A DNA stretch of 64,000 bases, taken from assembly GCF_010731115.1 (NCBI RefSeq), contig NZ_AP022616.1, forward strand, positions 5,146,001 through 5,210,000. The letters run 5' to 3'. Position 1 is the first letter of the stretch. Each line of letters begins with the position of its first letter. Positions 1 through 15,990 of this stretch are shown piece after piece. The position numbers and the translations under genes are program-made. The notes beneath the pieces are model-generated. The model saw only the letters and a program-made list of their open reading frames with translations. It was not told where the DNA came from and searched no databases. This DNA is from Mycolicibacterium phocaicum. Lineage in GTDB: Bacteria; Actinomycetota; Actinomycetes; Mycobacteriales; Mycobacteriaceae.

Positions 1-408
1 GTGCTGGAAGCGGTCACCGACGCCCAAGAGGCGCAGTTCGTCGTCACCGAGAACCTGTCGGTCAGCGACCCGACCACCACCGTGCTGATGCGCGGCTGGG
101 AAACCCGGCAAGCACAGGCACAGGAGCATGCCGCCGAGATCGTTTCGCGAGCAACGATTCTCGCCGCGACGGACCGGGAGGTAGCCGGCAAAATCACGGC
201 CGCGCTAGCCCCGCTGCGTGAGCTGCGGTTCGACGAGCCCACGGACTCTCCGGTCCAGTTGGACGGCTGGCACTCGGCGCCGCCGACGGGCATCGTGTGG
301 TGCCGAGACCATCCTGGTGGCGGATTCATGTGCCGCGAATTGCTACCGAACGGCACGATCTCAATATTCGCGTCACCGACCGACATCAGTGGCCACTGGC
401 CGGACTGA
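1..408 (+). CDS. Hypothetical mycobacterial protein, probably 5'-truncated by the window edge
   Basis: The frame is open from base 1 and stops at TGA 406-408, so the GTG at base 1 may be internal and the true start upstream. About 135 residues are visible. The first 70 or so are rich in Ala, Glu and Gln and look helical (for example AQAQEHAAEIVSRATIL). The last 60 carry Trp, Gly, Pro and single Cys residues (IVWCRDHPGGGFMC) and end in HWPD. This layout recalls the C-terminal part of mycobacterial proteins with a helical ESX/WXG-like N-terminus, but I cannot name a family. A second small gene follows 15 bases downstream on the same strand and may be co-transcribed. Confidence 0.6.
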   Translation: MLEAVTDAQEAQFVVTENLSVSDPTTTVLMRGWETRQAQAQEHAAEIVSRATILAATDREVAGKITAALAPLRELRFDEPTDSPVQLDGWHSAPPTGIVWCRDHPGGGFMCRELLPNGTISIFASPTDISGHWPD

Positions 409-423
409 CGAGAGGCACCCACG

Positions 424-759
424 ATGGATGGCAACGAACCACAATATGTGCTGGTAGTGCGGCCCCAGGCCAAGCAGCACACCGACCAGACGTGGACGGC
501 CTGGTACCCGAAATCGGACTGGTCAGTGACCGGCACCACCAAATCCGAAGCGCTACAGGAACTCCGGAGCGAGTTCGAGCGGCGACTATCGGCTGGCCTG
601 GCCAACAACGAGCCTGACGACGCGCTCCTGGCTGAGCACCTCGCCGCCCCTATTCCTGGGGTATACGCCATCGAGCACGCGGCCTATATGCGGATGCGCA
701 GCGGCCCGAACTTCCAGCAGACACTCGACGCCTATATCGAGCAGTTGGACGCCGGGTAG
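424..759 (+). CDS. Hypothetical small protein, possibly HicB-like fold
   Basis: A 111-residue protein with an ATG 15 bases after the previous stop, so the two probably share a transcript. The first half (YVLVVRPQ, WTAWYPKSDWSVTG, then a helix KSEALQELRSEFERRL) has the strand-strand-helix pattern of HicB-like small domains. The second half is helical and acidic. No toxin partner such as HicA lies beside it, so an antitoxin role is unsupported. Function unknown. Confidence 0.6.
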   Translation: MDGNEPQYVLVVRPQAKQHTDQTWTAWYPKSDWSVTGTTKSEALQELRSEFERRLSAGLANNEPDDALLAEHLAAPIPGVYAIEHAAYMRMRSGPNFQQTLDAYIEQLDAG

Positions 760-1147
760 CAACACCAACGCCAGATTGAGTGCAGTCTGGGTGGCTGGCC
801 GGGCTGTCCCAGTTGAGGATGATGTGCTGGCCGCCGGCAAAGGCGCCCTGTGGTCATCACCCACCGCGACTCCACCATCTCCGTGGGTGGCCGATCTCGG
901 TGATCCGCAGGCGGCCCGCATCTGGCTGTTGATGTGATGGGGCGGCGACTTCAGGGTCGATGCTGCTGCTTAACACCGTGGTTGCGTCCACTTGGTCGCC
1001 TAACGATAGACATGGAAGCAACCGTTCCCCATCCATCGGCGAAATGATCATATCCCCGGCGTGCAGGCTCGGAGAAGATCCGCTGGCAGTCTGGGGCGAC
1101 CAAAATGGGTGCCGGCACGCTATACGCGCCAACCGATGTTGGCGCTG
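760..1147 (+). other. Gene-poor stretch, probably decayed DNA
   Basis: Nearly 400 bases follow the previous gene without a convincing reading frame. The frames here are short, overlap each other on both strands and lack a plausible start with a ribosome binding site. A short piece near 850-890 reads as VVITHRDSTISV in one frame, which could be a relic, but nothing around it continues the frame. I see no RNA gene or repeat. Confidence 0.4.
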
Positions 1148-1355
1148 ATGCCGCGGCGTCCCACTGACAGTGACATCGACCGACTGAAAAGCCTTTTCGC
1201 CCAACAGCACCGAGCCGCGGGTATCGGACGTCGACATCGCCGCCGCAGTCATGGCCATCACCGACAGCATGGCCCGAACCGAAATCGATCACATGACGCT
1301 GGGAGGCGGCCGCCCGCGCCGATCCGGCGCCGCAGCGCCGCACACCTGGTACTAA
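1148..1355 (+). pseudogene. Possible small broken gene ahead of the metal-response locus
   Basis: The frame from ATG 1148 reads as a plausible small helical protein (DIDRLKSLFAQQHRAA) up to about 1220. From there a different frame reads equally sensibly (SDVDIAAAVMAITDSMAR) to a TAA at 1353-1355. Joined, they would give a product of about 68 residues with one frameshift near 1220. I do not recognise the family. It could be a chance pairing of two short frames; its position directly upstream of an operator-like palindrome is the main reason to list it. Confidence 0.3.
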
Positions 1356-1376
1356 TGTACGTAGTACGTACGTAGA
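1350..1376. promoter_or_regulatory. Operator-like TACGTA repeat upstream of the MPT63-like gene (site A)
   Basis: This stretch packs overlapping GTACGTA units (1357-1363, and GTACGTACGTA at 1364-1374) into an imperfect palindrome of TAC/GTA words. It sits 23 bases before the likely GTG start of the MPT63-like gene. BlaI/CopY-family repressors bind TAC/GTA-rich palindromes, and a gene of that family lies 0.7 kb downstream. I infer a repressor site overlapping the promoter. Confidence 0.4.
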
Positions 1377-1398
1377 TTATGTGAGAGGGCGTGTTCAG

Positions 1399-1989
1399 GT
1401 GTACATGGTTCGACGGATGGTGGTGGCGGCAGCCGGGATGTTCGGCTTGGCGATGATGGGGGCACCGCTGGCCGCGGCGGCCGAGACGTGTCCGCATCAG
1501 ATGGGGTCGGCGCAGCACCTGCCCGACGCCGGTGGCGGCGCGGCGGCCGACTGGACGCTGACCGGTCTGCACCCCAGCGCCGACCCGGCTCCCGGATACC
1601 CGCTGGCCGGGCGGTTGTGGGAGGCCACCGTGACGGTGCGGGCGGTGTCGGGTGCGGTGACTCCGATGATCCCGAACTTCAGCGCGATGGGTGAACAGCA
1701 CGCCCAGTATCCGGTGTTGTGGCAGCTGGCCAGCCCGTCGGGTATCTCGGCGGCCACCCTCGCGCAGGGGCAGAGTGCCACGGGCAAGGTGTACTTCGAC
1801 GTGACTGGGGCCGACCCGATGATGGTGACGTATTCCGCCGGTGGGCCCAAGCCGGCGATGATGTGGTGCGACATGGCGGCGATGGCGCCGATGATGTCCA
1901 AGCCGATGCCCATGCCGATGGACGACTGCCCCTGCTGCGACGGCGGCTGCGATTGCTGCGACAACAAAGGCATGAACAACGGAATGTAG
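1399..1989 (+). CDS. Secreted MPT63-like (DUF1942) protein with a Met/Cys-rich C-terminal tail
   Basis: The product has 196 residues. A Sec signal peptide (VRRMVVAAAGMFGLAMMG, cleavage near AAAA-E at about residue 28) precedes an immunoglobulin-like domain recognisable as the MPT63 antigen family: PGYPLAGRLWEATVTV, then SATGKVYFDVTG, in the family order. Unlike MPT63, the chain continues for about 35 residues with a methionine block (MMSKPMPMPM), six cysteines in eleven residues (CPCCDGGCDCC) and a Met/Asn end. Such a tail would suit Cu(I) or another soft metal outside the cell; this is inference. GTG 1399 is preferred over GTG 1381 and ATG 1405 because GAGAGGG (1383-1389) lies nine bases before it. 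Operator-like sites lie on both sides, with the blaI/M56 pair just downstream. Confidence 0.85.
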   Translation: MYMVRRMVVAAAGMFGLAMMGAPLAAAAETCPHQMGSAQHLPDAGGGAAADWTLTGLHPSADPAPGYPLAGRLWEATVTVRAVSGAVTPMIPNFSAMGEQHAQYPVLWQLASPSGISAATLAQGQSATGKVYFDVTGADPMMVTYSAGGPKPAMMWCDMAAMAPMMSKPMPMPMDDCPCCDGGCDCCDNKGMNNGM

Positions 1990-2020
1990 GACCCGCGGCG
2001 CTGGGCACATCCGGCGCACC

Positions 2021-2047
2021 CGTTCTACTATGTAGCTACGTAGAACG
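2021..2047. promoter_or_regulatory. Palindromic operator upstream of the blaI-like gene (site B)
   Basis: The outer arms CGTTCTAC and GTAGAACG match perfectly over 8 bp with an 11-base centre that contains the inner palindrome GTAGCTAC. The site lies between the MPT63-like gene and the BlaI-family repressor gene, 73 bases before the latter's start. Autoregulation through such a site is typical of BlaI/MecI/CopY repressors, so it is probably the repressor's own operator. Confidence 0.6.
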
Positions 2048-2120
2048 ATGCGGGACGGCGAGCATTCCGCTGCCCGGCCAGATGGGCGAGAAGCCACGAC
2101 ATGAATTTGAGGTGTGGGGC

Positions 2121-2503
2121 ATGCGGGTTCGGGGTTTCGGGGAACTTGAAGCGGTCATCATGGACCGCATCTGGAACCGGACGAGGACTCGCCGACCACC
2201 GTGCGGGAGGTGTTCGACGAACTGGCCGCCGAGCGCGACATCGCGTACACCACGGTGATGTCGACGATGGACAACCTGCACACCAAGGGGTGGCTGACCC
2301 GGGACCGCCGCGGCAAGGCCTACCACTATCGGCCCGTCCTGACCCGTGAGGAGCACAGCGCCCGGCTGATGCGCGACGCGCTCGACGGCGGCGGCAACAG
2401 CGATCTGGTGCTGGCCCATTTCGTGGAGCACATGAGTGCCGAGGAGTCGGCGGAGCTGCGGGCCGCGTTGCGTCGCCTGGCCAAACGGGCGGACACCCCG
2501 TGA
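2121..2503 (+). pseudogene. BlaI/MecI/CopY-family transcriptional repressor, frameshifted
   Basis: From ATG 2121 the frame gives FGELEAVIMDRIWNR, the start of a BlaI winged helix. It then falls out of frame at about 2180, where the next frame continues DEDSPTTVREVFDELAAE and runs to TGA 2501-2503. Restoring one G in the run at 2179-2180 gives a protein of about 127 residues with the family pattern (IAYTTVMSTMDNLHTKGWL, then RGKAYHYRP). BlaI-type repressors are cleaved by, or respond to, a partner M56 membrane protease, which is encoded immediately downstream with overlapping GTGA. Either the repressor is lost and its targets are constitutive, or the base is a sequence error. Confidence 0.75.
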
Positions 2504-3438
2504 GCACGGTGGTGTGCCTGCTTGGCTACAGCCTCGCGGTGCTGCTGGCCGGGCCACCCGTGCTGCGCCGGCTCACCGCCGGCGGGCACGCGCCCCGCCT
2601 AGGGGCGGCGGCCTGGCTGACCGCGATCATCAGCGTCCTGGCCAGCTGGGTGGCCGCAGCCGCGATCACGATCGTCGAACTGGTCCGCCATTGGGGACAT
2701 CTGGACCGCCTCATCGTCTCGTGCCTGATGTGGCTGTGCCGCGCGGCCAGCGGCGCCGTGGACAGCACGGCGCAGGCTGTGGTGATCGGTGCGCTCGCCG
2801 CGGCGGGCGCCGGTGCCGCGATCGCCGCGGTGCGGGTGGTGCGAGCAGCGGGTCTGCTGCGCCATCGTGCCCGCGAGCACGCCCGCGATGTGCGGCTGGT
2901 CGGGCGCGCGACCGCCGACGCCGATGTGGTGGTCATTGATGCGCCCCAGCCCGCGGCCTACTGCGTGACGGGCCGCCCGGGGGCCATCGTGTTCACCAGC
3001 GCCGCGCTGGCTGCGCTCGATGACCGCCAGCGCGCGGCGGTGCTGGCCCACGAACGCGCCCACTTGGCCGGGCACCATCTGACGGTGATGGTGGGGATGC
3101 GCGCCCTGGCCCGGGTTTTTCCCCGCCTGCTGCTGATCACCGAAGGCGTCCAACAGGTTTCGCGGCTGTTGGAGATGTGCGCCGACGATGTCGCGGTCCG
3201 CGATCATGGTGCTCGCGCGTTGCTGTCCGGGCTGATCGCGCTGTGCGGCGCGGCACCGGCCGAAGCCCTCGGGGCGGCCGATGTTGCCGTGCTGGACCGT
3301 GCTGCCCGCCTGACCGGGCCCGCCGGCACAGGGCTGGCGGCGCGGGCGGGTTTGGCCGCCGCGCTGGTGACGGTCATCGCAGGGCCACTGTTCATCGCCG
3401 CCTTGGCGGCATCGGGCACAGCGCTGTGCATGGGATAG
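2500..3438 (+). CDS. M56-family (BlaR1/MecR1-like) membrane metalloprotease
   Basis: A 312-residue integral membrane protein whose GTG start overlaps the stop of the blaI-like gene (GTGA), showing translational coupling. Hydrophobic segments lie near residues 5-20, 38-60, 90-112 and 280-308. The zinc protease motif HERAH is at residues 184-188, with a downstream EMCADDVAV segment supplying the usual third ligand region. There is no extracellular penicillin-binding sensor domain, so this is the short mycobacterial type (as in the Rv1845c-Rv1846c pair), not a beta-lactam sensor. Expected role: intramembrane signalling that inactivates the repressor in response to a stress. The Met/Cys-rich neighbours suggest metal as the signal, which is inference. 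Confidence 0.85.
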   Translation: MSTVVCLLGYSLAVLLAGPPVLRRLTAGGHAPRLGAAAWLTAIISVLASWVAAAAITIVELVRHWGHLDRLIVSCLMWLCRAASGAVDSTAQAVVIGALAAAGAGAAIAAVRVVRAAGLLRHRAREHARDVRLVGRATADADVVVIDAPQPAAYCVTGRPGAIVFTSAALAALDDRQRAAVLAHERAHLAGHHLTVMVGMRALARVFPRLLLITEGVQQVSRLLEMCADDVAVRDHGARALLSGLIALCGAAPAEALGAADVAVLDRAARLTGPAGTGLAARAGLAAALVTVIAGPLFIAALAASGTALCMG

Positions 3439-3469
3439 GACCACATGTCGAGGTAAGGACGATCCGAAG

Positions 3470-4057
3470 ATGGCCAGTGACACGACTTTTCGTTACCTGA
3501 CCCGCCGAGCCGCCCTGGCGGCACTGGGGTTGGTGCCGTCGCGGGCCTGGCCTACGCAGTGCTCGGGATCGTCGAATCACCCCGGGCGTCCGGTTGACTG
3601 ACGGCGCGATGATGGGGGTCGGCGGCGCCGACATGGCCCGCTACATGGAGATGTTCGCGCGGCACACCGAACTACGCCGCACCGTCGAGGACATTCCCGG
3701 CGGGTACGCACCACCACCGAATCCGGCGCCCCCGAACTGGCCGCCCAACTCAAAGCGCACGTGGCAAGCATGTACACCCACGTTGACCAGGGCAATGAGG
3801 TCATGTGCATGAGCGAGAGCCTGCCGACCCTGTTTCGGCACGCAGGCGGCTACCGCCGCCAACTGTCGTTCACCGACACCGGTGTGGTGGCCGAGGAAAC
3901 CTCCGACGATCCTGCGATCACCGACGCGATCCGAGCCCACGCCCGGGAAGTGAGCGGCTTCGTGCGTGACGGCATGCCCGCCGGGATGCGGTCCACGATG
4001 GGCGATTCGGGATCGATGATGGGCCCCGGGCCCATGATGGGACCAGGAGGCCACTAG
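3470..4057 (+). pseudogene. Exported protein with Met-rich tail, three frameshifts
   Basis: Four consecutive pieces in three frames make one coherent protein: TFRYLTRRAALAALG (3470 onward), then VGAVAGLAYAVLGIVES (from 3529), then LTDGAMMGVGGADMARYMEM (from about 3588), then VRTTTESGAPELAAQLKAH (from 3704) to the stop at 4055-4057. Each switch is explained by one missing base in a G or T run. The N-terminus has a twin-arginine-like RR and a membrane segment; the end is Met/Gly/Pro-rich (MMGPGPMMGPGGH), as in copper-handling proteins. Family function unknown. It follows the M56 gene by 31 bases and is probably in the same operon. Confidence 0.65.
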
Positions 4058-4079
4058 TAGTGGCCCCGGTGCGGCCGAG

Positions 4080-4795
4080 TCACTCGTCGCGCCCGAAAGC
4101 GTAGGTAGCCGGGATGGTTTCACCCGGTGCCGGCGCACCGTAGACGATGGCGATCTCGTCGTGGGCTTTCAGCAGGATCGCCGCTGGATTGCCGGACTGT
4201 AGTGCGCCGTTGACGAACACCCGCACATTCTTGCCGCCGCTAGCGTGTAACGCGCCAATGTTGATGGCCGACAGGCTGACCTGCCACTCGGAGAAGAATT
4301 CACCGAGGCTGAATTGCCGGCTGGCCGGCGATTCGACATGGATGACGCCGGTGTCGTCATGGGTATGCAGCGGGCTCATGGTGCGACGCTTCAAGTCGAT
4401 GCCGATGTTCGCCGGCACCGGCACCGGCCGCCCGTCGACCAGTACATCGACATGGGCGTGAACGTGATCGACCATGCCCTCTTCACCCAACATCGGCAAC
4501 CCGCCGCAGCCACAGCGCCGGCGGCATCACGTGGCGCGGGCCACGGCGGCATCCTGTTGGCGCCCACCGCCACCGTTGCGGCCGGGTGATCCAGGCCAGT
4601 CGCCGCCACCTTGGCGTGGTTGCGGGCATTGTGCGGTAGCCAGACGAACACCGCCGCGAGCACCGCCGCCGCCACAACAACGAATGCGCCGATCCAGACC
4701 CATCTGCCGCGGCGTCCGCCATCGCGCACATGCGCCATCGCTTTTCGCTGCGCCCGTTCGGCTTTCGCCGCATCTCGCGGATGCGTGGCTCCCAT
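4080..4795 (-). pseudogene. Membrane-anchored His-rich protein of the metal locus, one frameshift
   Basis: On the minus strand the frame from ATG 4795 gives a basic N-terminus, one membrane segment (WVWIGAFVVVAAAVLAAVF) and a Pro-rich linker. At about 4500 it must shift to the frame that reads MVDHVHAHVDVLVDG, SPLHTHDDTGVIHVE and HDEIAIVYGAP to the stop at 4080. Restoring one G in the GGG run repairs it to about 238 residues. The HVHAH, HTHDD and IHVE motifs look like metal ligands on an extracytoplasmic domain. GGAGAGA lies just upstream of ATG 4795. The gene is downstream of the IS-interrupted gene and was probably in the same operon. Confidence 0.7.
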
Positions 4796-4881
4796 GCGGT
4801 CTCTCCGATCTCGCTACCTAGGCCAACTGGACACAGATACCGACGCCCCATATCGGCATCAAAGCTGGTGCTCCCGTGACC

Positions 4882-4901
4882 TTCCCCCGAGACCGTGGAG
4901 G
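4882..4901 (+). repeat. Left terminal inverted repeat of the IS3-family element
   Basis: Begins TTCCCCCGAGA and ends GTGGAGG. It matches the reverse complement of 6151-6170 except at one position (C here, T in the partner), which fixes the left end of the element. Confidence 0.9.
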
Positions 4902-4922
4902 CATCAGCTATAAGGAGTAGCG

Positions 4923-5213
4923 ATGTCAGAGAAGCGGAAGAAGTACGACCGGGAGTTCCGTGAGGGGGCTGTTCGGATCGTCGAGGAGACGGGTAAGTCG
5001 ATCGCGGCGGTGGCTCGGGATCTGGGGGTGAACGAGGGCACCCTGGGCAACTGGGTGACCCGGGCGCGGGAAGCGCGGGAAGGTCGCGGTGAGCTGTCCA
5101 AGGACGATGTTGCCGAGCTCAAGCGCCTGCGTGCCGAGGTGGCTGAGTTGCGGATGGAGCGTGATGTCCTCAAGCGATCAGTGGTCCTGTGGGTGAAGGA
5201 GGCGACGAAGTGA
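4923..5213 (+). CDS. IS3-family transposase OrfA (helix-turn-helix subunit)
   Basis: A 96-residue protein. The N-terminal part is the HTH_Tnp_1 fold (YDREFREGAVRIVEETG, then SIAAVARDLGVNEGTLGNWV), which binds the terminal repeats. The C-terminal part is a leucine-zipper-like coiled coil (ELKRLRAEVAELRMERDVLK) for multimerisation. AAGGAG lies just before ATG 4923. The stop at 5211-5213 overlaps the OrfB start. OrfA acts with OrfB in cut-copy transposition, alone as a regulator or as part of a frameshift fusion. Confidence 0.92.
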   Translation: MSEKRKKYDREFREGAVRIVEETGKSIAAVARDLGVNEGTLGNWVTRAREAREGRGELSKDDVAELKRLRAEVAELRMERDVLKRSVVLWVKEATK

Positions 5214-6145
5214 GCGTGGCACGCTTCATCGCCGACCAGAGGACCAAATACCGTGTGCCCCATACGATCACGTGCGCGCTGTTGGGTGTTGGTGTGTCGT
5301 GGTTCTATAAGTGGCTTGGCCGGGCCGGCAACCATGATGGGGTGCACACCGACACCGACCGGCGCCGCGTGGCACTCGATGAGGCAGTCAGCACCGCATT
5401 TGTCAGAGCAAAGGGGTTGCATGGGTCGCCGCGGCTGGTCGCTGACCTGCGGGATCTGGGCTGGCAGGTGTCGGAGAACACGGTGGCCGATTCGATGCGC
5501 CGTCAGGGGTTGGTGGCCCGCAAGATCCGTCGCCGGGGTGGCCTGACCCGCCAGGACCAGACGGCACCGAAGTTCCCTGACCTGGTCAAACGGGACTTCA
5601 CTGCGGCCGCGCCGAACTGTAAATGGGTGGGCGATATGACCGAGATTCCCACCGAGTGCGGGCAGAAGCTGTATCTGGCGACGGTGATCGACCTCTACAG
5701 TCGGCGGTTGTTGGGGGCGGCGATGGGACTGCACCCGGATGCCGAGTTGGCGTGCGCGGCAATCAACATGGCCGTAGCTGCCCGCGGTGGCCGCCAAGCG
5801 ATCTGGCGCGATGAGGAGTCCGAACGGGTCATATTTCACACCGATCGCGGCAGCACTTATACCGCGAAGGTGTTCACCACGTTGTGCCGGACCTTGGGTA
5901 TTCGGCAGTCGATGGGCCGTGTGGGGTCGTGTTTCGATAACGCCGCCGCGGAAGCGTTCTTCTCTTCATTGGAATGGGAAGTGTTGTCCCGCAATATGTT
6001 CCGTGATACCGTTCATGCGCAGGCTGTGGTGATCGATTGGTGTTACACCTTCTACAATCACCAGCGTCGGCACAGCGCCGCCGATGGGTTATCGCCGGTC
6101 AACTACGAGATCAGGGAATCCAACATCACGCCGGAAGCGGCATAA
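5210..6145 (+). CDS. IS3-family transposase OrfB (DDE integrase catalytic subunit)
   Basis: 311 residues from GTG 5210, chosen because GAAGGAGG at 5195-5202 is well placed and the start overlaps the OrfA stop. An HTH_21-like region (ARFIADQRTKYRVPHTITC) precedes the rve integrase core with the catalytic triad in GDMTEIP, HTDRGSTYTA and NAAAEAFFSSLEWE, and the usual C-terminal YNHQRRHSA. No A-rich slippery heptamer is obvious at the overlap, so coupled re-initiation may be used instead of, or beside, -1 frameshifting. Confidence 0.92.
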   Translation: MSVARFIADQRTKYRVPHTITCALLGVGVSWFYKWLGRAGNHDGVHTDTDRRRVALDEAVSTAFVRAKGLHGSPRLVADLRDLGWQVSENTVADSMRRQGLVARKIRRRGGLTRQDQTAPKFPDLVKRDFTAAAPNCKWVGDMTEIPTECGQKLYLATVIDLYSRRLLGAAMGLHPDAELACAAINMAVAARGGRQAIWRDEESERVIFHTDRGSTYTAKVFTTLCRTLGIRQSMGRVGSCFDNAAAEAFFSSLEWEVLSRNMFRDTVHAQAVVIDWCYTFYNHQRRHSAADGLSPVNYEIRESNITPEAA

Positions 6146-6150
6146 GGAAC

Positions 6151-6170
6151 CCTCCACGATCTCGGGGGAA
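6151..6170 (-). repeat. Right terminal inverted repeat of the IS3-family element
   Basis: The reverse complement of this stretch matches 4882-4901 at 19 of 20 positions and defines the right boundary, 5 bases after the OrfB stop. Confidence 0.9.
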
Positions 6171-6385
6171 CCACACCCGCGCAGCCTTCAGCTCGGCGAT
6201 TTCAGCCCGCAGCTGCGCCACCTCGGGACGCTCGGCCTCAGTGCCACTGTGGTTGCCGCGCATCATCATCCACAGCATCAACCCCATCCCGACCGGGCAC
6301 GCCAAGGGCGCGATCGCCACCAGGAATTCACGCATCGCGACTCCTTCCCGCATCAAGACTTCTCTGACATCCGGAAACAGCACAA

Positions 6386-6413
6386 TCTACTATCTCCGTA
6401 CCTAGATAGTAGA
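6386..6413. promoter_or_regulatory. Perfect 10-bp inverted repeat, BlaI/CopY-type operator (site C)
   Basis: TCTACTATCT at 6386-6395 and AGATAGTAGA at 6404-6413 are exact inverted repeats around an 8-base spacer. The site begins 51 bases upstream of the minus-strand Met-rich protein gene. It shares TCTACTAT with site B at 2021-2047, so both may be targets of the BlaI-like repressor encoded at 2121-2503, joining the two arms of the locus in one regulon. Confidence 0.6.
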
Positions 6414-6777
6414 CAAGGCCCTTGCTCGCCGCCACCGAGCAATTGAGTGTCGTCAAAGACTTGGACCCTGTTTGTCATCGTGGATTCTGACCCCGAGTGG
6501 GTCGAGCAGACCGCCGAGGCCACCGAATCGTCCGGGCCGCGTTTGCGGTTCGGTCGCACGGGCATGACCGTGGGCATCCAACTTTTGAGAGCGGCCGTGT
6601 GGGACCGATATCGATGTTTGAGGATCCTGGTTGCTCCGACCTGGATGCGATGGTCGTTCGTTGAGCTGCTACAGAATAGGAGGACCAATCTGTATCGGAT
6701 CAAATGAGAAACCACCAACCGCGCGGTTATCGATCCATCTGATACATCGCAGGTCAGCGCTGTGTAACTGCATCAGT
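6414..6777. other. Gene-poor stretch between the metal locus and the DUF222 relic
   Basis: About 360 bases with lower GC than the neighbours. An 86-codon frame at 6447-6707 (+) and a 121-codon frame on the other strand overlap each other, lack recognisable domains and lack good ribosome binding sites. I call neither a gene. The area may be a junction left by earlier insertions or deletions. Confidence 0.4.
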
Positions 6778-7065
6778 TCAAATGAGAACGGACAGCAGCG
6801 CACCGCCGACGCGGATCAGCCGCTCGGCCACCGACGGTGCGCACCCCAGTGAGATCAGCAGTTCCCGCGGCGTGCGGCCCTGCGATGCGGCTACCCCGCA
6901 GCTGTTCAGCACCCCGGTCATCGTCGCGGCGAGATGGTCAACCACGCCTCGGGCGAGCAGCAGTGCCCGCATCGCGGTGACGGCGTCATCGCCTGCAAGG
7001 TTCTCGGGGATGACCACGTCACGCAGCTGGTCGAGAAGGGGGTTGAGATCCGGTGCGATTCCCAT
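6778..7065 (-). pseudogene. Truncated DUF222 (13E12-type HNH) protein gene
   Basis: 95 residues from ATG 7065 (PDLNPLLDQLRDVV, LAATMTGVLNSCGVAAS, GRTPRELLISLGCAPSVAERL) match the N-terminal DUF222 region of the mycobacterial 13E12 repeat family. These proteins normally run to several hundred residues with a C-terminal HNH nuclease motif. Here the frame stops at 6778 with no HNH domain and the rest is absent downstream. A perfect LexA box lies 12 bases upstream. The piece is probably a relic, though expression of the short product cannot be excluded. Confidence 0.65.
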
Positions 7066-7076
7066 GCCCAATTGTA

Positions 7077-10348: not shown

Positions 10349-11422
10349 ATGAAAGCGCTGCGCTATTACGCACCCGAGGACGTCCGGCTCGAAGAGGTGC
10401 CCGAACCCGTGTGCGGGCCCGACGAGATCAAGATCCGGGTGCGCAACTGTTCGACGTGCGGCACCGACGTCAAAATCCTGCACAACGGGCATCAGAACCT
10501 GACCCCGCCGCGGACCATCGGGCACGAGATCGCCGGCGACATCGTCGAGGTCGGAGCCGAGGTGAATCCCACGTACGGCACCGCCTGGGTGCCGGGCGAC
10601 CGCGTGCAGGTCATCGCCGCCGTGCCGTGCGGCGAGTGCCACGAATGCGCCAAGGGCTGGATGGCGGTGTGCCAGAACCAGACGTCCATGGGTTACCAGT
10701 ACGACGGCGGGTTTGCCGAGTACATGATCGTGCCCCGCCAGGTGCTCAAAGTCGATGGGCTGAACCGGATTCCGGACAATGTCGGTTACGACGAGGCGTC
10801 GGCGGCGGAACCCTTCGCCTGCGCCATCAACGCCCAGGATCTGCTCGGCATCGAGCCGGGCGACACCGTCGTGGTGTTCGGAGCCGGTCCCATCGGGTGC
10901 ATGCACATCCGTATCGCGCGCGGCGTGCACAACTGCGGGCCGGTCTACCTCGTCGACGTCAACGACGCCCGGCTGAAGATGTCCGCCGACGCGGTGCATC
11001 CCGATGAGGTGATCAACGCGGCCAAGACCGATGTGGTGGCTCGCGTCCTGGAGCTGACGGACGGGCGCGGCGCCGACGTGGTGATCACCGCAACTGCCGC
11101 CAACATCACCCAGGAACAGGCCATCGCGATGGCCGCGCGCAACGGCCGCATCTCGTTCTTCGGCGGCCTGCCCAAGACCAACCCGACGATCACCTGCGAT
11201 TCCAACGTCGTGCACTACCGGCAGCTGCACATCCACGGCGCCAACGGATCCGCGCCCGAGCACAACAAGCGTGCGCTGCACTACATCTCGACCGGTCAGG
11301 TGCCGGTGAAGGACTTGATCACGCGGCACATCGCGCTCGACGAGGTCCTCGACGCGTTCGGCATCGTCCAGAACGGCGAAGCCATCAAGGTGACGGTGGA
11401 GCCCAGCGCTGTGCTCGTCTGA
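10349..11422 (+). CDS. Zinc-dependent medium-chain polyol dehydrogenase
   Basis: 357 residues from ATG 10349 with GGAAGG just upstream. Catalytic zinc ligands are in CSTCGTD and the GHE motif (TIGHEIAG); the structural zinc site is CGECHECAKGWMAVC. The Rossmann motif VVVFGAGPIGCMH binds NAD(P), and the Asp of VYLVDVNDAR suggests NAD. This is the sorbitol/threonine/galactitol-phosphate dehydrogenase branch. It is transcribed divergently from the PTS operon, so it probably oxidises the imported polyol or its phosphate. Mannitol-1-phosphate is usually oxidised by the unrelated MtlD, so the substrate may be another polyol. Confidence 0.85.
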   Translation: MKALRYYAPEDVRLEEVPEPVCGPDEIKIRVRNCSTCGTDVKILHNGHQNLTPPRTIGHEIAGDIVEVGAEVNPTYGTAWVPGDRVQVIAAVPCGECHECAKGWMAVCQNQTSMGYQYDGGFAEYMIVPRQVLKVDGLNRIPDNVGYDEASAAEPFACAINAQDLLGIEPGDTVVVFGAGPIGCMHIRIARGVHNCGPVYLVDVNDARLKMSADAVHPDEVINAAKTDVVARVLELTDGRGADVVITATAANITQEQAIAMAARNGRISFFGGLPKTNPTITCDSNVVHYRQLHIHGANGSAPEHNKRALHYISTGQVPVKDLITRHIALDEVLDAFGIVQNGEAIKVTVEPSAVLV

Positions 11423-11425
11423 GCC

Positions 11426-11791
11426 TCAGCCGCCGACGGCGGCGATATAGCCACCGATGGCGCCGATGCACAGGACCGCACACAACCCCAGCGTGCCGAC
11501 GGCAAAAGGCCAGGCACGCAGGCGCTTCACCAGCCGGATGGCGGTCACGACCGTGCCGGCCAAGGCCACCAGTGCCGCCGCGATGAATCCCGCTGCCATG
11601 GCATTGATCCCGGCGTCGATGTGACAGGTCGCCGGCGGGCAGTAGTCGGTGAACGCGAGCGCGAACACTGCGAAGAACGCGGCCACACCGCCGCCGACGT
11701 AGGTGAGCACCAGCGCGCTGATCGACGCGGCGAGGTCCCCGCTCGAGAGCGGGGGCTTGGCCGGTGGCGGCGGCAGGTAGCCGTAGGTCAT
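11426..11791 (-). CDS. Small hypothetical membrane protein
   Basis: 121 residues from the ATG at 11791; a longer frame to 11893 exists, but the proline-rich MTYGYLPPPPAKPPL is a typical mycobacterial start. The protein has three likely membrane segments (ALVLTYVGGGVAAFFAVFAL, AAALVALAGTVVTAI, and VGTLGLCAVLCIGAIGGY). A Cys-containing loop (TDYCPPATCHID) between the first two may be extracytoplasmic with a disulfide. No function recognised. It converges with the polyol dehydrogenase, whose stop is only 3 bases away. Confidence 0.7.
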   Translation of the reverse strand: MTYGYLPPPPAKPPLSSGDLAASISALVLTYVGGGVAAFFAVFALAFTDYCPPATCHIDAGINAMAAGFIAAALVALAGTVVTAIRLVKRLRAWPFAVGTLGLCAVLCIGAIGGYIAAVGG

Positions 11792-11928
11792 GGCGGGATG
11801 GTAGCCGCGCCGACGGTGACGTGGTGGGCGAAAAATCGACAGAAGTTCGCACACCAGCGCCCACTCGAAGCCCGAATTTGACGCACATGCCAACCCCTGC
11901 GGGGCGGATGTGCGTAACCTTCGGAGCT

Positions 11929-13341
11929 ATGCGGCACTACTACACCGCCGAGCAGATTCGCGCGGCCGAGGCGCCGCTGTTGGCTTCCCTGCCCGATGGC
12001 GTGTTGATGCGCCGGGCGGCCTATGGCTTGGCGACGGCCATCGCCGCCGAACTCAAGTCCCGCACCGGTGGGGTCGCGGGCCGCCGGGTCTGCGCGGTCG
12101 TCGGCTCCGGGGACAACGGCGGCGACGCGTTGTGGGCAGCCACCTTTCTGCGCCGGCGCGGAGCCGGCGCAACGGCTGTGCTGCTGAACCCGGACCGCAC
12201 ACACGCCAAAGCGCTCGAAGCCTTCCACGCAGCCGGCGGCAGAATCGTCGAAACCATCCCCGAAGCAACGGATTTGGTGATCGACGGCGTCGTCGGCATC
12301 GGTGCCACCGGGCCGCTACGGCCCAATGCCGCCGCCGTCTTCGCGGCCAACACCGCGCCCGTCGTCGCCGTCGACCTGCCCAGCGGTATCGACGTCCAGA
12401 CCGGCGCCACCGACGGCCCCCACGTGCGGGCCGCGCTGACCGTCACCTTCGGCGGCCTCAAACCCGTGCACGGACTGGCCGACTGCGGCCGCGTCGAACT
12501 GATCGACATCGGACTTGACCTGCCGCAGCCGACGTTCCTCGGATTCGAAGCGCACGACGTCCGCGCCCGTTGGCCGGTGCCGCACCCGTCGGACGACAAG
12601 TACAGCCAGGGCGTCAAGGGCGTGCTCGCCGGGTCGGCGACCTACCCCGGCGCGGCAATCCTGAGCACCGGCGCCGCTGTTGCCGCGACCTCCGGCATGG
12701 TCCGTTACGCCGGTTCCGCGCACGCCGAGGTGGTGTCGCACTGGCCGGAAGTCGTTGCGGCGCCGGATGTGACGACCGCCGGGCGGGTCCAGGCGTGGGT
12801 GGTCGGCCCGGGCCTCGGCACCGACACCGCCGGTGACGAGGCACTGCGCTTCGCCTTGGACACCGACCTCCCCGTGATCGTCGACGCCGACGCCCTCACG
12901 CTCCTGGCCGCCGACCTCGACCTCGTCGCGGACCGCACGGCACCCACCGTGCTGACACCGCACGCCGGTGAATTCGCCCGGCTCGCAGGACATCCGCCGG
13001 GTTCCGACCGGGTCACCGCCACCCGCGAACTCGCCGACCGCCTCAATGCCACCGTCCTGCTGAAAGGCAATGTCACCATCATCGCCGAGCCGGGTGGCCC
13101 CACGTATCTCAATCCCGCCGGCCAATCCTGGGCTGCCACAGCCGGATCCGGCGACGTCCTGTCCGGCATCATCGGGGCCCTGCTCGCGTCGGGCATCGCA
13201 CCGGGCGAGGCTGCGGCGATGGCCGCGTTCGTCCACGCCCGTGCCGCCGATCTCGCCGCACATGATCCCGGCCCTCGTCCCGCGCCGACGTCGGCGCACC
13301 GCATTCTGGCTCATGTCCGGGCCGCCATCGCATCGCTCTAG
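11929..13341 (+). CDS. nnr: Bifunctional NAD(P)H-hydrate repair enzyme Nnr (epimerase + ADP-dependent dehydratase)
   Basis: 470 residues. The N-terminal half is the YjeF_N NAD(P)HX epimerase (CAVVGSGDNGGDALWAA, VDLPSGIDVQTGA). The C-terminal half is the ribokinase-like ADP-dependent dehydratase (VVGPGLGTDTAG, VIVDADALTLL, TPHAGEFARL, AATAGSGDVLSGIIGALLA). The enzyme restores hydrated NADH/NADPH. It corresponds to Rv3433c, which in M. tuberculosis also lies next to gadB. ATG 11929 is chosen because YTAEQIRAAE is the family start. The gadB GTG follows 13 bases downstream, so the two are probably co-transcribed. Confidence 0.92.
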   Translation: MRHYYTAEQIRAAEAPLLASLPDGVLMRRAAYGLATAIAAELKSRTGGVAGRRVCAVVGSGDNGGDALWAATFLRRRGAGATAVLLNPDRTHAKALEAFHAAGGRIVETIPEATDLVIDGVVGIGATGPLRPNAAAVFAANTAPVVAVDLPSGIDVQTGATDGPHVRAALTVTFGGLKPVHGLADCGRVELIDIGLDLPQPTFLGFEAHDVRARWPVPHPSDDKYSQGVKGVLAGSATYPGAAILSTGAAVAATSGMVRYAGSAHAEVVSHWPEVVAAPDVTTAGRVQAWVVGPGLGTDTAGDEALRFALDTDLPVIVDADALTLLAADLDLVADRTAPTVLTPHAGEFARLAGHPPGSDRVTATRELADRLNATVLLKGNVTIIAEPGGPTYLNPAGQSWAATAGSGDVLSGIIGALLASGIAPGEAAAMAAFVHARAADLAAHDPGPRPAPTSAHRILAHVRAAIASL

Positions 13342-13354
13342 GAAGGGAATTTTT

Positions 13355-14746
13355 GTGTCGCACAAGCATGTTCGGGCATCGGTCATGAGCCCCGCTTACA
13401 CCGGCAGGCTCTCCACGGCACCGGTTCCATCGCTGCGGCTACCCGACGACCCGATGGACCCGCAGGCGGCCTACCGGTTCATCCACGACGAGTTGATGCT
13501 CGACGGCAGCTCCCGGCTGAACCTCGCCACCTTCGTCACCACGTGGATGGATCCCGAGGCCGAGAAGCTGATGGCCGAGACGTTCGACAAGAACATGATC
13601 GACAAGGACGAATACCCGGCCACCGCGGCGATCGAGGCCCGGACGGTGTCCATGGTGGCTGACCTGTTCCACGCCGACGACCTGCGCGACGACGACCCGT
13701 CGTCAGCGTGCGGGGTGTCCACCATCGGTTCCAGCGAGGCCGTCATGCTGGCCGGCCTGGCCCTCAAGTGGCGGTGGCGCGAGAAAATCGAAGCGGATGG
13801 AAAGGACTGGCGCACCCATACCCCCAACCTGGTGATGGGTGCCAACGTCCAGGTGGTGTGGGAGAAGTTCTGCCGCTACTTCGACGTCGAGCCGCGGTAC
13901 CTGCCGATGGCCGAGGACCGCTACGTCATCACCCCCGAACAGGTGCTCGCCAACGTCGACGAGGACACCATCGGCGTCGTGGGCATCCTCGGCACCACCT
14001 TCACCGGTGAGCTCGAGCCCATCGCCGAGATCTGCGCGGCGCTCGATCAGCTCGCACAAGAGAAGGGTCTGGACATCCCCGTCCACGTCGACGCGGCCAG
14101 CGGTGGTTTCGTGGTGCCGTTCCTGCACCCGGATCTGGAGTGGGACTTCCGGTTGCCGCGGGTGGTGTCGATCAACGTCAGCGGCCACAAGTACGGACTG
14201 ACGTATCCGGGCATCGGGTTCGTGGTCTGGCGCAGCAAGGAGCATCTGCCCGAGGACCTCGTCTTCCGGGTCAATTACCTGGGCGGCGATATGCCGACCT
14301 TCACCCTGAACTTCTCCCGGCCCGGCAACCAGGTGGTGGGCCAGTACTACAACTTCCTGCGCCTCGGCCGGGCCGGTTACGCGCAGATCATGCACTGCCT
14401 GTCGGACACCGCCCGCTGGATCGGTGACGAGCTGCGCAAGAGCGAGCACTTCGAGGTCATCACCGACGGCTCGGCCATCCCGGTGCTCGCGTGCCGGCTG
14501 AAGGGCAAGCGGCCCTACACCGAGTTCGACGTGTCACACGCGCTGCGTGCCTACGGCTGGCAGGTGCCGGCGTACACCATGCCCGAGGGTGCGACGGACA
14601 TCGCAGTGCTGCGTGTGGTGGTACGTGAGGGCTTCTCGGCGGACCTCGCCCGCGCCTTGCGAGACGACCTGATTACCGTCCTGAACAGCCTCGATGAGCT
14701 CAAGCCGGAGGGCCAGTTCGACGACGTGCAGCCCTTCGCGCACTGA
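13355..14746 (+). CDS. gadB: Glutamate decarboxylase
   Basis: 463 residues, close to the family length. It is PLP-dependent, with the cofactor lysine in SGHKYGL near residue 279, and it contains [17 protein letters not shown] and [13 protein letters not shown], hallmarks of GadA/GadB. It converts glutamate to GABA and CO2 while consuming a proton, giving acid tolerance and feeding the GABA shunt. GTG 13355 follows AGGAAGGG at 13340-13347 and aligns with the Rv3432c start. A spaced inverted repeat follows the stop. Confidence 0.93.
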
Positions 14747-14753
14747 CCGCCAA

Positions 14754-14802
14754 CCTGAGCGTGTGTGCCAGATCTCCCGAAATCGTGGTGCACACGCTCA
14801 GG
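14754..14802. terminator. Inverted repeat between gadB and alr
   Basis: CCTGAGCGTGTG (14754-14765) and CACACGCTCAGG (14791-14802) are exact 12-bp inverted repeats around a 25-base loop. The repeat starts 8 bases after the gadB stop and ends 43 bases before alr. No U-tract follows, so it could be a factor-assisted terminator, an mRNA-stabilising hairpin or an intergenic repeat. Confidence 0.5.
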
Positions 14803-14844
14803 CTCGGCGCGGAGTGCAGGGCGTCTGGGAGAATCGGAGGCGAT

Positions 14845-15990
14845 ATGAGCTCGCCCGATCCCCAACCTGCTGCCCAGGCCGTCATCGACCTGGGCGCAAT
14901 TGCGCATAACGTGCGGCTTTTGCGGGAACGCGCGGGCAGTGCCGCGGTGATGGCGGTGGTCAAGGCCGACGGTTACGGGCACGGTGCGCCGCAGGTCGCG
15001 CGCGCCGCACTGGCGGCCGGGGCCGCCGAGCTGGGCGTCACCAACATCGGTGAGGCGCTGGCGCTGCGGCAGGCCGGCATCACGGCGCCGGTGTTGTCGT
15101 GGCTGAACCTGCCCGGCACCGACTTCGCTCCCGCGTTGGCCGCCGATGTGCAGGTGGCGGTGGCCTCGGTGCGTCAGTTCGACGACGTGCTCGACGCGGT
15201 GCGCCGCAGCGGCGCCCCTGCCACCCTCACCGTCAAGGTCGACACCGGCCTCAGCCGCAACGGCGTCAGCCCCGCTGAATACCCGGCCCTGCTCGACGCC
15301 ATCGCCCGGGCCGCCGCCGACGGTGCGGTTCGCCCTCGCGGCATCATGAGCCACCTCGCGTGCGGCGACGACCCGCAGCACCCGATGAACGACACGCAGG
15401 CCGCCCGCCTCACCGCGGCGCGCAAGCAGGCGGCGGCTGCCGGCGTGCACTTCGAAGTCGCGCACCTGGCCAACTCGCCCGCGACGCTGACGCGGCCCGA
15501 TCTGCATTTCGATGTGGTGCGGCCGGGTATCGCGGTCTACGGGCAGTCGCCCATCCCGGCGCTCGGGGATTTCGGCCTGCGACCCGTCATGACGCTGAAA
15601 TGCCCTGTCGCCGCGGTACGTTCGATCAAAGCCGGCGACGGTGTGTCGTACGGACACACGTGGATCGCCGACCGCGACACCACTGTCGGGCTCATTCCGC
15701 TCGGCTATGCCGACGGGGTGTTCCGCGGCCTGAGCGGACGCATCGACGTCAGCATCAACGGCGCCCGATACCGCAACATCGGCCGAATCTGTATGGACCA
15801 GTTCGTCGTTGACCTCGGCCCTGACGGTGCCGGCGTCACGGTGGGGGACGAGGCGGTGCTGTTCGGCTCGGGTACCGCCGGTGAGCCGACGGCGCAGGAC
15901 TGGGCCGAACTGCTGGGCACCATCAACTACGAGGTCGTGACCAGCCCGCGGGGCCGGATTGCCCGGACCTATCGCGAGTCGACGGGCTGA
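14845..15990 (+). CDS. alr: Alanine racemase
   Basis: 381 residues. The PLP lysine is K40 in [10 protein letters not shown], and the second catalytic base, a tyrosine, is in [17 protein letters not shown] and the C-terminal beta domain are present. The enzyme makes D-alanine for peptidoglycan and is the target of D-cycloserine. ATG 14845 has GGAGG just upstream (14836-14840). The next gene starts 6 bases after its stop, beginning a run of tightly packed or overlapping genes to 21073. Confidence 0.95.

What the first reader, a model, noticed from the sequence alone, without database searches (positions are those of the whole stretch)
1350..6413. BlaI/M56-controlled, Met/Cys/His-rich 'metal response' island, partly in decay
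A BlaI-type repressor and M56 protease sit between a secreted MPT63-fold protein with a Met/Cys tail, an exported protein with a Met-rich tail, a His-rich membrane-anchored protein and a Met-rich small membrane protein. Three operator-like palindromes flank both arms. The set suggests an envelope metal-handling system (copper is my guess) regulated by proteolysis instead of CsoR/RicR. I know of no described system with this composition.
Basis: partly seen in the sequence, partly recalled or inferred. Interest (0 to 1): 0.8.

Follow-up and report, generated by a model that had tools for sequence, protein, structure and literature searches.

The report
Transposon-borne BlaI/M56 metal-response gene cassette
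A small jumping-gene element in a Mycobacterium genome carries a repressor/protease switch and a set of exported, probably metal-binding proteins; the same switch and DNA signal recur in copper-resistance islands of relatives, and the protease may sense through two cysteines instead of an antibiotic-binding domain.

Summary
The genes and the three palindromes are real. They are cargo of a 12.3-kb Tn7-like transposon (window 1-6794 is its right half), present twice in this genome with 5-base target duplications. The copies differ by 0 substitutions and 12 indel bases, 9 in homopolymers of 4 or more, so "decay" is probably sequencing error; the IS3-family insertion is real. Linkage recurs: an M. 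chubuense plasmid holds the whole set within 4.1 kb. The palindrome is a shared operator, found in 20 of 24 same-genus genomes with this class of M56 and 0 of 35 others; 52 of 58 sites lie within 40 kb of such an M56. It precedes Met/Cys-tailed MPT63 genes (16 of 26) but no untailed one (0 of 31), and on plasmid copper islands also cell-wall, cytochrome-oxidase and thiol genes. The M56 lacks BlaR1's sensor but has two cysteines absent from 21 of 21 chromosomal M56. Best reading: a mobile, proteolysis-controlled envelope defence against thiophilic metal, most likely copper. New variant of BlaI/BlaR1 control; metal, DNA binding and cleavage are inferred.

The parts
1..6794 (.). Right half of a Tn7-like transposon (whole element G000:C1 5140498-5152794; left 5.5 kb with TnsA/TnsB/TnsC/TniQ-like genes lies left of the window)
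   Evidence: 12.3-kb block repeated at 743743-756041; ends TGTCCGTTCTCATTTGA / TCAAATGAGAACGGACA and 5-base target duplications GCAGC and ATCGA; TnsA-like NF033179 275.7 bits, cut-off 110
1..408 (+). 3' part of a 237-aa cargo gene (L032 9696-10409), next to an EspC-like gene; function unknown
424..759 (+). 111-aa cargo gene, function unknown
   Evidence: no Pfam match at E 0.1
1353..1379 (.). Operator-like palindrome in front of the MPT63 gene
   Evidence: 14.4 bits; similar site in front of the MPT63 gene of M. aubagnense
1381..1989 (+). Secreted MPT63/DUF1942-domain protein with a Met/Cys-rich C-terminal tail (7 Cys, 9 Met)
   Evidence: PF09167 8.9e-37; 1lmi 1.5e-28; tail counts
2020..2048 (.). 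Operator-like palindrome in front of the BlaI gene
   Evidence: 17.9 bits
2121..2503 (+). BlaI-type repressor; frame breaks near its N-terminal end in this copy, open in the second copy
   Evidence: PF03965 3.6e-19 for 2201-2503; 2g9w 3.7e-14
2500..3438 (+). M56-type membrane metalloprotease, 312 aa, HExxH, no C-terminal sensor domain; C75 and C310 conserved in the island class; frame broken in the second copy
   Evidence: PF01435 1.5e-11, PF05569 0.0059
3470..4057 (+). Tat-type exported protein with a GGMMGPG-like Met tail ('MetTat'); frame-broken here, open (196 aa) in the second copy
4080..4795 (-). Membrane-anchored His-rich protein ('His', HxHxHxD ... HTH ... H invariant in 36 sequences); frame-broken here, open (238 aa) in the second copy
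4882..6170 (+). IS3-family insertion (ORFs 4923-5213 and 5189-6145, imperfect terminal inverted repeats, ends read by eye); in this genome found only inside the two island copies
6171..6335 (-). Small Met-rich membrane protein, 3' end replaced by the IS (open frame 6126-6383)
   Evidence: a 64-aa protein with LACPVGMG-M-WMMMRG in common on the M. chubuense plasmid, compared by eye
6386..6413 (.). 28-base operator TCTACTATCT-N8-AGATAGTAGA in front of the small protein gene
   Evidence: 44.0 bits (one of the six sites the matrix was made from)
6692..6794 (.). Right transposon end: two TCATTTGA-type repeats and the terminal inverted repeat, then target duplication GCAGC

Best explanation
The island is the cargo of a recently active Tn7-like transposon and works as a mobile envelope metal-protection module. 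BlaI represses the operons by binding the TACTAT...ATAGTA-type palindromes. The membrane protease M56 (four hydrophobic segments) has no penicillin-binding sensor; instead two cysteines predicted on the outer face of the membrane (C75 between segments 2 and 3, C310 after the last) bind a thiophilic metal, most likely Cu(I). Binding activates the cytoplasmic HExxH site, BlaI is cleaved, and the exported Met/Cys/His-rich proteins (tailed MPT63, Tat/Met-tail protein, His-rich anchored protein, Met-rich small membrane protein) are made and bind metal outside the cytoplasm. Shown here: gene content, transposon structure, recurring linkage, the shared operator and its association with this M56 class and with tailed MPT63, and the class-specific cysteines. 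Inferred: DNA binding by BlaI, cysteine topology, metal binding, cleavage, and copper as the main inducer.
For: Transposon. Linkage: M. chubuense pMYCCH.01 has MPT63, His, small, MetTat, BlaI and M56 within 4.1 kb, with three operator sites scoring 42.1, 40.9 and 43.8 bits; M. gilvum pMSPYR101 has MPT63-BlaI-M56; the five main genes occur together in Mycolicibacterium sp. CR10, and three of them (MPT63, His, MetTat) in Mycobacterium sp. AT1 up to its contig end. Operator: 20 of 24 genomes with island-class M56 against 0 of 35 others (Fisher 3.8e-12); 52 of 58 sites within 40 kb of such an M56, the other 6 on contigs without one. Tailed MPT63: 16 of 26 with the operator against 0 of 31 untailed. 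Sensor: C75 in 42 of 42 island M56 (37 of 37 clusters below 95% identity) and 0 of 21 chromosomal; a Cys in the last 12 residues of 38 of 42 (35 of 37 clusters) and 0 of 21 chromosomal. Metal neighbours: multicopper oxidase, CopC, CopD, copper-type P-ATPase.
Against: No expression, binding or metal data. 4 of 24 genomes with island-class M56 show no operator match, and 10 of 26 tailed MPT63 genes lack an operator cluster. MetTat has BlaI within the fetched flanks in only 10 of 79 loci, so it is a wider family. Of 35 metal genes in the plasmid islands only 9 have the operator within 200 bases, and of 13 BlaI genes 4. The window cassette itself has no ATPase, oxidase or CopC among the ORFs examined. 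The operator words were chosen after looking at the plasmid loci; genomes and genes are related by descent, so p-values overstate independence. Topology rests on hydropathy and on recalled BlaR1 topology. Many neighbour loci carry ArsR/Cd-type genes, so metals other than copper are possible.
Confidence: 0.66

Rival explanations
1. The M56 senses envelope or peptidoglycan damage (including beta-lactams), as BlaR1 does, and metal genes are passengers because metals damage the wall.
For: In the large plasmid islands the operator lies within 200 bases of 12 of 27 cell-wall genes (LDT, Ig-LDT, RipB/C, M23, Lnt, transglycosylase), a higher share than the 9 of 35 metal genes.
Against: No penicillin-binding sensor domain (312 aa, ends after its fourth hydrophobic segment; no such family in Pfam at E 1). 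No cell-wall enzyme or beta-lactamase was recognised among the cassette ORFs. The island-class cysteines point to thiol chemistry.
Confidence: 0.15
2. General thiol/oxidative-stress switch: C75 and C310 form a disulfide under oxidants (or after metal-driven oxidation), and this triggers BlaI cleavage.
For: Two class-specific cysteines; one of 7 TlpA and one of 2 CcdA genes carry the operator.
Against: Met/Cys/His-rich conserved positions and tails of the outputs suit metal binding better than redox repair.
Confidence: 0.15
3. A decaying remnant with no function, as the finding's title suggests.
For: BlaI, MetTat and His frames are broken in this copy, the M56 in the other; the IS truncates the small gene.
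Against: 0 substitutions against 12 indel bases over 12,304 columns; 9 of 12 in homopolymer runs of 4 or more, which hold 3% of the bases; different genes are broken in the two copies, and each of the five main genes is open in at least one.
Confidence: 0.08

Closest known systems
BlaI/BlaR1 (MecI/MecR1), staphylococcal beta-lactam sensor-repressor
   Same: BlaI-fold repressor paired with a membrane M56 metalloprotease; palindromic sites in front of repressor and target genes
   Different: No penicillin-binding sensor; two class-specific cysteines instead; neighbours and operator-marked genes are metal and envelope genes, and no beta-lactamase was recognised in this cassette
Chromosomal mycobacterial BlaI/M56 pair (Rv1846c/Rv1845c type; names recalled)
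   Same: Same two families side by side in this genome (L001) and M56 of that class in relatives
   Different: M56 lacks C75 and the terminal Cys (0 of 21); no operator cluster in L001
CopY/TcrY copper repressors (Firmicutes)
   Same: BlaI-related winged-helix repressor of copper genes
   Different: CopY senses Cu in its own C-terminal CxC motif (recalled); this BlaI's open rest has no Cys, scores 27 against a cut-off of 121.95, and has a protease partner
Mycobacterial RicR/CsoR copper regulons (recalled)
   Same: Copper defence with multicopper oxidase, ATPase and Cys-rich proteins
   Different: Other repressor family, direct metal sensing, no proteolysis
Actinobacterial Tn7-like (heteromeric transposase) elements
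   Same: TnsA-like, TnsB-like, TniB-type ATPase and TniQ-like genes, repeated end motifs, 5-base target duplications
   Different: Cargo; the neighbouring relative in the same genome carries mercury genes instead
MPT63/MPB63 (1lmi)
   Same: The MPT63 domain, 1.5e-28
   Different: Added Met/Cys tail (4-11 Cys in 25 of 26 tailed genes)

Membership tests
BlaI/BlaR1 system | BlaI-type winged-helix repressor (PF03965) | tested here: met
   69.6 bits, cut-off 22.6
BlaI/BlaR1 system | Membrane M56 protease with HExxH | tested here: met
   HExxH at 184-188 invariant in 42 of 42; PF05569 only 16.3 bits, below its cut-off of 31, while PF01435 (M48) is above its own; most tblastn relatives on plasmids are annotated M56
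BlaI/BlaR1 system | C-terminal penicillin-binding sensor domain | tested here: not met
   Protein ends right after the last hydrophobic segment, 279-311 of 312; no such family in Pfam at E 1
BlaI/BlaR1 system | Ligand-triggered cleavage of BlaI | not testable with these tools
   Needs biochemistry
CopY/TcrY | TIGR02698 equivalog score | tested here: not met
   27 bits, cut-off 121.95 (the open rest of the protein only)
CopY/TcrY | C-terminal CxC...CxC metal motif (recalled) | tested here: not met
   No Cys in the 2201-2503 translation
Tn7-like transposon | TnsA-like endonuclease | tested here: met
   NF033179 275.7 bits, cut-off 110
Tn7-like transposon | TniB/TnsC-type ATPase | tested here: met
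   PF05621 60.4 bits, cut-off 22.4
Tn7-like transposon | TnsB-like DDE transposase | tested here: inconclusive
   rve 28.3 (cut-off 32.6) and Mu-transpos_C 20.1 (cut-off 21.7) in copy 1; the sister element's TnsB has Mu-transpos_C 33.4, above cut-off; 73-76% identity between the two
Tn7-like transposon | TniQ | tested here: inconclusive
   PF06527 24.6 bits, cut-off 27
Tn7-like transposon | 5-base target duplication and TGT...ACA ends with repeated motifs | tested here: met
   GCAGC and ATCGA for the two copies; 3 left (one inverted) and 2 right motif copies
MPT63 (DUF1942) | PF09167 domain | tested here: met
   126.4 bits, cut-off 22.4

The most novel reading that the evidence does not exclude
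A two-cysteine M56 protease is a transmembrane metal sensor that releases BlaI repression by proteolysis. On mycobacterial and rhodococcal plasmids it controls a whole 'spare envelope' regulon: copper-binding proteins plus second copies of metal-vulnerable cell-wall, cytochrome-oxidase and disulfide enzymes, so that the cell replaces its outer machinery under metal attack. Small pieces of this regulon move as cargo of Tn7-like transposons.
Probability: 0.42. Interest if true: 0.86.

Novelty: new variant of a known kind. Interest (0 to 1): 0.72.

Why it matters
BlaR1-type proteases are known for sensing beta-lactams. A recurrent class without that sensor and with two conserved extra cysteines, tied by one operator to metal and envelope genes, suggests that proteolytic control by M56 is a general way to read the outside of the cell. 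It gives testable functions to several unnamed exported families (tailed MPT63, MetTat, His), and predicts that metal tolerance and cell-wall enzymes are co-regulated in environmental mycobacteria, with possible cross-effects on drugs that act on the wall.

Tried and rejected
Rejected: real decay; direct metal sensing by a CopY-like repressor; beta-lactam sensing by a penicillin-binding domain; MetTat being strictly tied to BlaI/M56 (BlaI in 10 of 79 loci). Led nowhere: sequence relatives of MetTat and His among solved structures (two weak globin matches for MetTat at E 0.17-0.2, none for His at E 1); PHROGs; NCBIfam for MetTat, His and the small protein's relative; M56 in solved structures (one match at E 0.17 that I take for chance). 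AlphaFold models were obtained for MetTat (mean pLDDT 74.7, beta-beta-alpha repeated) and His (76.6, beta-rich, the five models ranged 58-77), but no fold comparison could be made. One search counted MPT63 genes twice because two queries gave shifted keys; it was replaced. Searches were earlier, less complete passes of the same count. In one search the fragments L003 and L031 (broken copy-2 M56) and alignments under 230 residues were dropped; the 42 sequences include some cut by locus ends and one shorter piece of the window's own gene, so repeats the count on 37 clusters. Literature: nine full-text searches ran. In the listings that I saw, capped at 10-15 papers for (15 of 108; 15 of 18; 12 of 15; 12 of 72; 10 of 76), no title or abstract start dealt with a BlaI/M56 metal regulon in mycobacteria. 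I opened no paper. The library lacks most subscription papers, so 'not described' is a weak statement.
Full report
What is in the window. Window 1381-1989 encodes a DUF1942/MPT63-domain protein (PF09167 E 8.9e-37; 1lmi E 1.5e-28 over residues 40-162) with a 40-residue tail that holds 7 Cys and 9 Met. A BlaI-type repressor follows; its frame breaks near the N-terminal end, and the open rest (2201-2503) matches PF03965 at 3.6e-19 and 2g9w at 3.7e-14. An open 312-aa membrane protease follows at 2500-3438 (PF01435 1.5e-11; PF05569 only 0.0059, below its cut-off), then a broken gene for an exported protein with a Met tail (3470-4057, 'MetTat'), a broken minus-strand gene for a His-rich anchored protein (4080-4795, 'His'), an IS3-family insertion (about 4882-6170) and the 5' part of a small Met-rich membrane protein (minus strand, start about 6335). 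AT-rich palindromes stand at 1353-1379, 2020-2048 and 6386-6413.

It is transposon cargo. The genome (G000, 5,853,197 bases, one contig) holds a second copy of the block, inverted, at 743743-756041; copy 1 is 5140498-5152794. Over 12,304 aligned columns there are 0 mismatches and 11 gap openings with 12 gap bases. Both copies end in TGTCCGTTCTCATTTGA / TCAAATGAGAACGGACA and are flanked by 5-base direct repeats, GCAGC and ATCGA. Left of the window lie a TnsA-like gene (NF033179, 275.7 bits against a cut-off of 110), a TnsB-like transposase (rve and Mu-transpos_C just under their cut-offs), a TniB-type ATPase (PF05621 2e-16) and a TniQ-like gene (24.6 bits, cut-off 27). TCATTTGA-type repeats occur three times at the left end (one inverted) and twice at the right. 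I read this as a Tn7-like element that has moved recently.

A sister element. Next to copy 2, at L034 6667-17013, lies a relative (76.1% DNA identity over 1,474 columns of TnsB) with the same TGTCCGTTCTCATT start and a TCTGG target duplication. It carries mercury genes: MerA (TIGR02053, 538.3 bits against 454.45), a MerR-type regulator and a Cad-type transporter. TnsB relatives at E 1e-60 or better were found in 52 of 198 same-genus genomes. Of 14 stretches taken around TnsB genes, four show ArsR and P-type-ATPase genes right after TniQ (L149, L150 of one kind; L154, L155 of another, with CadD); in the other ten I recognised no metal gene there, but my label set was limited. So the transposon family has carried at least four metal cassettes.

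Not decay. BlaI, MetTat, His, TnsB-like and TnsC-like frames are broken in copy 1; the M56 and the IS transposase are broken in copy 2. The 12 gap columns lie in runs of length 1, 1, 3, 4 (seven times), 5 and 5: 10 of 12 in runs of 3 or more and 9 of 12 in runs of 4 or more, where 13.1% and 3.0% of the bases lie. Homopolymer indels without substitutions are typical of long-read errors that polishing leaves in repeats (established knowledge; the sequencing method of this genome is unknown to me). Open forms of MetTat and His stand in copy 2 and as database proteins P0001 (100%) and P0121 (99%), whose sources are not shown. The IS has two copies in this genome, both inside the element, so it probably landed before the duplication.

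Recurring linkage. M. chubuense NBB4 pMYCCH.01 (L039 8947-13003) holds MPT63, His, small, MetTat, BlaI and M56 within 4.1 kb, with one further short hypothetical gene. M. gilvum Spyr1 pMSPYR101 holds MPT63-BlaI-M56 in the window's order. M. aubagnense pJCM15296 has BlaI, M56 and MetTat (77% identity) with His and a copper-type P-ATPase within 11 kb (TIGR01511 523.6 bits, cut-off 397); its MPT63 gene lies on the same plasmid between a P-ATPase and a multicopper oxidase. A scan of species genomes with the MetTat alignment gave 79 distinct loci (best 80 of 94 kept). Within the fetched flanks (8 kb where the contig allowed) BlaI was found in 10 of 79, M56 in 9, MPT63 in 10, His in 6, small in 2, a P-type ATPase in 41 and ArsR in 35. 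L131 (Mycolicibacterium sp. CR10) has MPT63, His, MetTat, BlaI and M56; L133 (Mycobacterium sp. AT1) has MPT63, His and MetTat and then its contig ends. Linkage recurs in unrelated places, but MetTat is a wider family than the BlaI/M56 set.

A shared operator. The palindromes in front of several MPT63 and BlaI genes on these plasmids agree with the window's: TCTACTATCT-N8-AGATAGTAGA centred on GTAC, and a shorter CTACTATNNNNCTACGTAG form. In 55.6 kb of intergenic DNA of 12 plasmid loci CTACGTA occurs 61 times (2.7 expected), against 2 times in 189.6 kb of coding DNA. Clusters of the operator words: 52 in 249.5 kb, 51 of them outside annotated genes, against 2-7 in ten shuffles (L028 and L039 share about 4 kb, so one site is counted twice). 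Other stretches: 1 in 40 kb (L044), 0 in 40 kb (L045), 3 in 40 kb (L046, all at 36.3-39.1 kb near RipA and BlaI), 1 in 18 kb (L047; this site lies in DNA that L047 shares with L029), 0 in L033, L035 and L036, 1 in 10 kb (L037). Among the MetTat loci, clusters number 26 in 147 kb with BlaI or M56 and 23 in 939 kb without; several of the latter loci hold other copper-island genes. The words were picked from the plasmid loci, so the next test matters more.

Test on other genomes. I searched 59 same-genus genomes with both operator forms (24-base core with up to 2 mismatches, 19-base form with up to 1). Matches occur in 20 genomes, all among the 24 that have an island-class M56 (E < 1e-30; in this genus the next value is 9.4e-21); 0 of the other 35 have one (Fisher 3.8e-12). 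Of 58 merged sites 52 share a contig with such an M56 and all 52 are within 40 kb of it; 6 are on contigs without one. G004, G018, G043 and G056 have the M56 and no match. The reversed control pattern gave no match for the first form and two for the second (G034, G040). In G000 the 24-base core occurs only in the two transposon copies. The other BlaI loci L001 and L002 of G000 show no cluster.

Which genes carry it. Of 57 distinct MPT63-domain genes in the fetched loci, 26 have 2 or more Cys in the tail, and 16 of these have an operator cluster just upstream; of 31 without such a tail none has (Fisher 9e-8). G000's other three DUF1942 genes have no Cys tail. On the plasmid islands the operator lies within 200 bases of the start of 12 of 27 cell-wall genes, 9 of 35 metal genes (MPT63 4 of 4), 9 of 22 respiratory or thiol genes, 4 of 13 BlaI genes, 12 of 58 hypothetical, 0 of 13 M56 (mostly second in an operon) and 3 of 58 other named genes; 34 of 97 for the first, second, third and fourth group together against 3 of 58, Fisher 1.1e-5 (L039 up to 4300 and genes cut by locus ends were left out). 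I set the classes from product names. Copper is known to inhibit L,D-transpeptidases (recalled, no paper opened), which would make spare cell-wall enzymes sensible in a copper island.

The sensor. BlaR1 ends in an outer penicillin-binding domain (recalled). This protease ends right after its fourth hydrophobic segment (1-23, 34-63, 90-114, 279-311). In 42 island-class sequences C75 is invariant and 38 have a Cys in the last 12 residues; in 37 clusters below 95% identity the counts are 37 and 35, the other two being short sequences (285 and 299 aa), probably cut by the locus end. In 21 chromosomal M56 sequences (L001 plus 20 fetched for comparison) position 75 is never Cys (A 8, E 7, S 4, Q 1, D 1) and none has a Cys in the last 12 residues; H127, Y154, HExxH, H193, E225 and D229-D230 are shared by both classes, and C155 in 41 of 42 and 21 of 21. 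The alignment around position 75 is gapped in the chromosomal class, whose loop is shorter. With BlaR1 topology (recalled) C75 and C310 face outward. I infer that they are the metal- or redox-sensing pair. The island class was gathered by similarity to the window protein (37-100% identity), so some shared residues are expected, but not ones absent from the whole other class.

Verdict. The finding is sound at its core and larger than its author could see: a mobile member of a recurrent BlaI/M56 regulon for metal and envelope protection in mycobacteria and rhodococci. It is not BlaI/BlaR1 in the strict sense (sensor domain tested and absent) and not CopY (tested, not met), though it may work like both in part. 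Copper is the favoured inducer because of the multicopper oxidase, CopC, CopD and copper-ATPase neighbours, but Cd/Zn-type ATPase and ArsR neighbours mean that other metals are open.

Noticed in passing
L034 6667-17013 (G000 761666-772012): A sister Tn7-like transposon with mercury cargo (MerA, MerR-type regulator and Cad-type transporter by family match; MerB-, TlpA- and CcdA-like genes judged mainly by eye). Its TnsB protein is identical with the same score in 8 other of 198 species genomes searched, so it has spread very recently.
   Followed up: partly
L032 9314-10760 (last two genes = window 1-408 and 424-759): Three small cargo genes between TniQ and the metal set: an EspC-like (PF10824) protein, a 237-aa protein and a 111-aa protein, perhaps type VII secretion-related, role unknown.
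   Followed up: partly
L032 1679-3145: A group II intron-type reverse transcriptase ORF (judged by eye) lies just left of transposon copy 1.
   Followed up: no
window 6778-7071 and L032 3658-4383: Copy 1 seems to have landed inside an HNH/13E12-type repeat gene (judged by eye); the flanks carry its two parts.
   Followed up: no
L155 (G037:C5) 1263-5930 and 11261-14943: Two Tn7-like transposase sets of different lineages close together, the first followed by CadD/P-ATPase/ArsR genes.
   Followed up: no
L002/L033 (G000 5389244-5389585): A further BlaI-type gene of this genome, without operator cluster nearby; partner and targets not examined.
   Followed up: no
L108, L135, L162, L163, L164, L170, L172, L173, L174, L184: Ten Met/Cys-tailed MPT63 genes without an operator cluster in front; they may answer to another regulator or to a diverged operator.
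   Followed up: no
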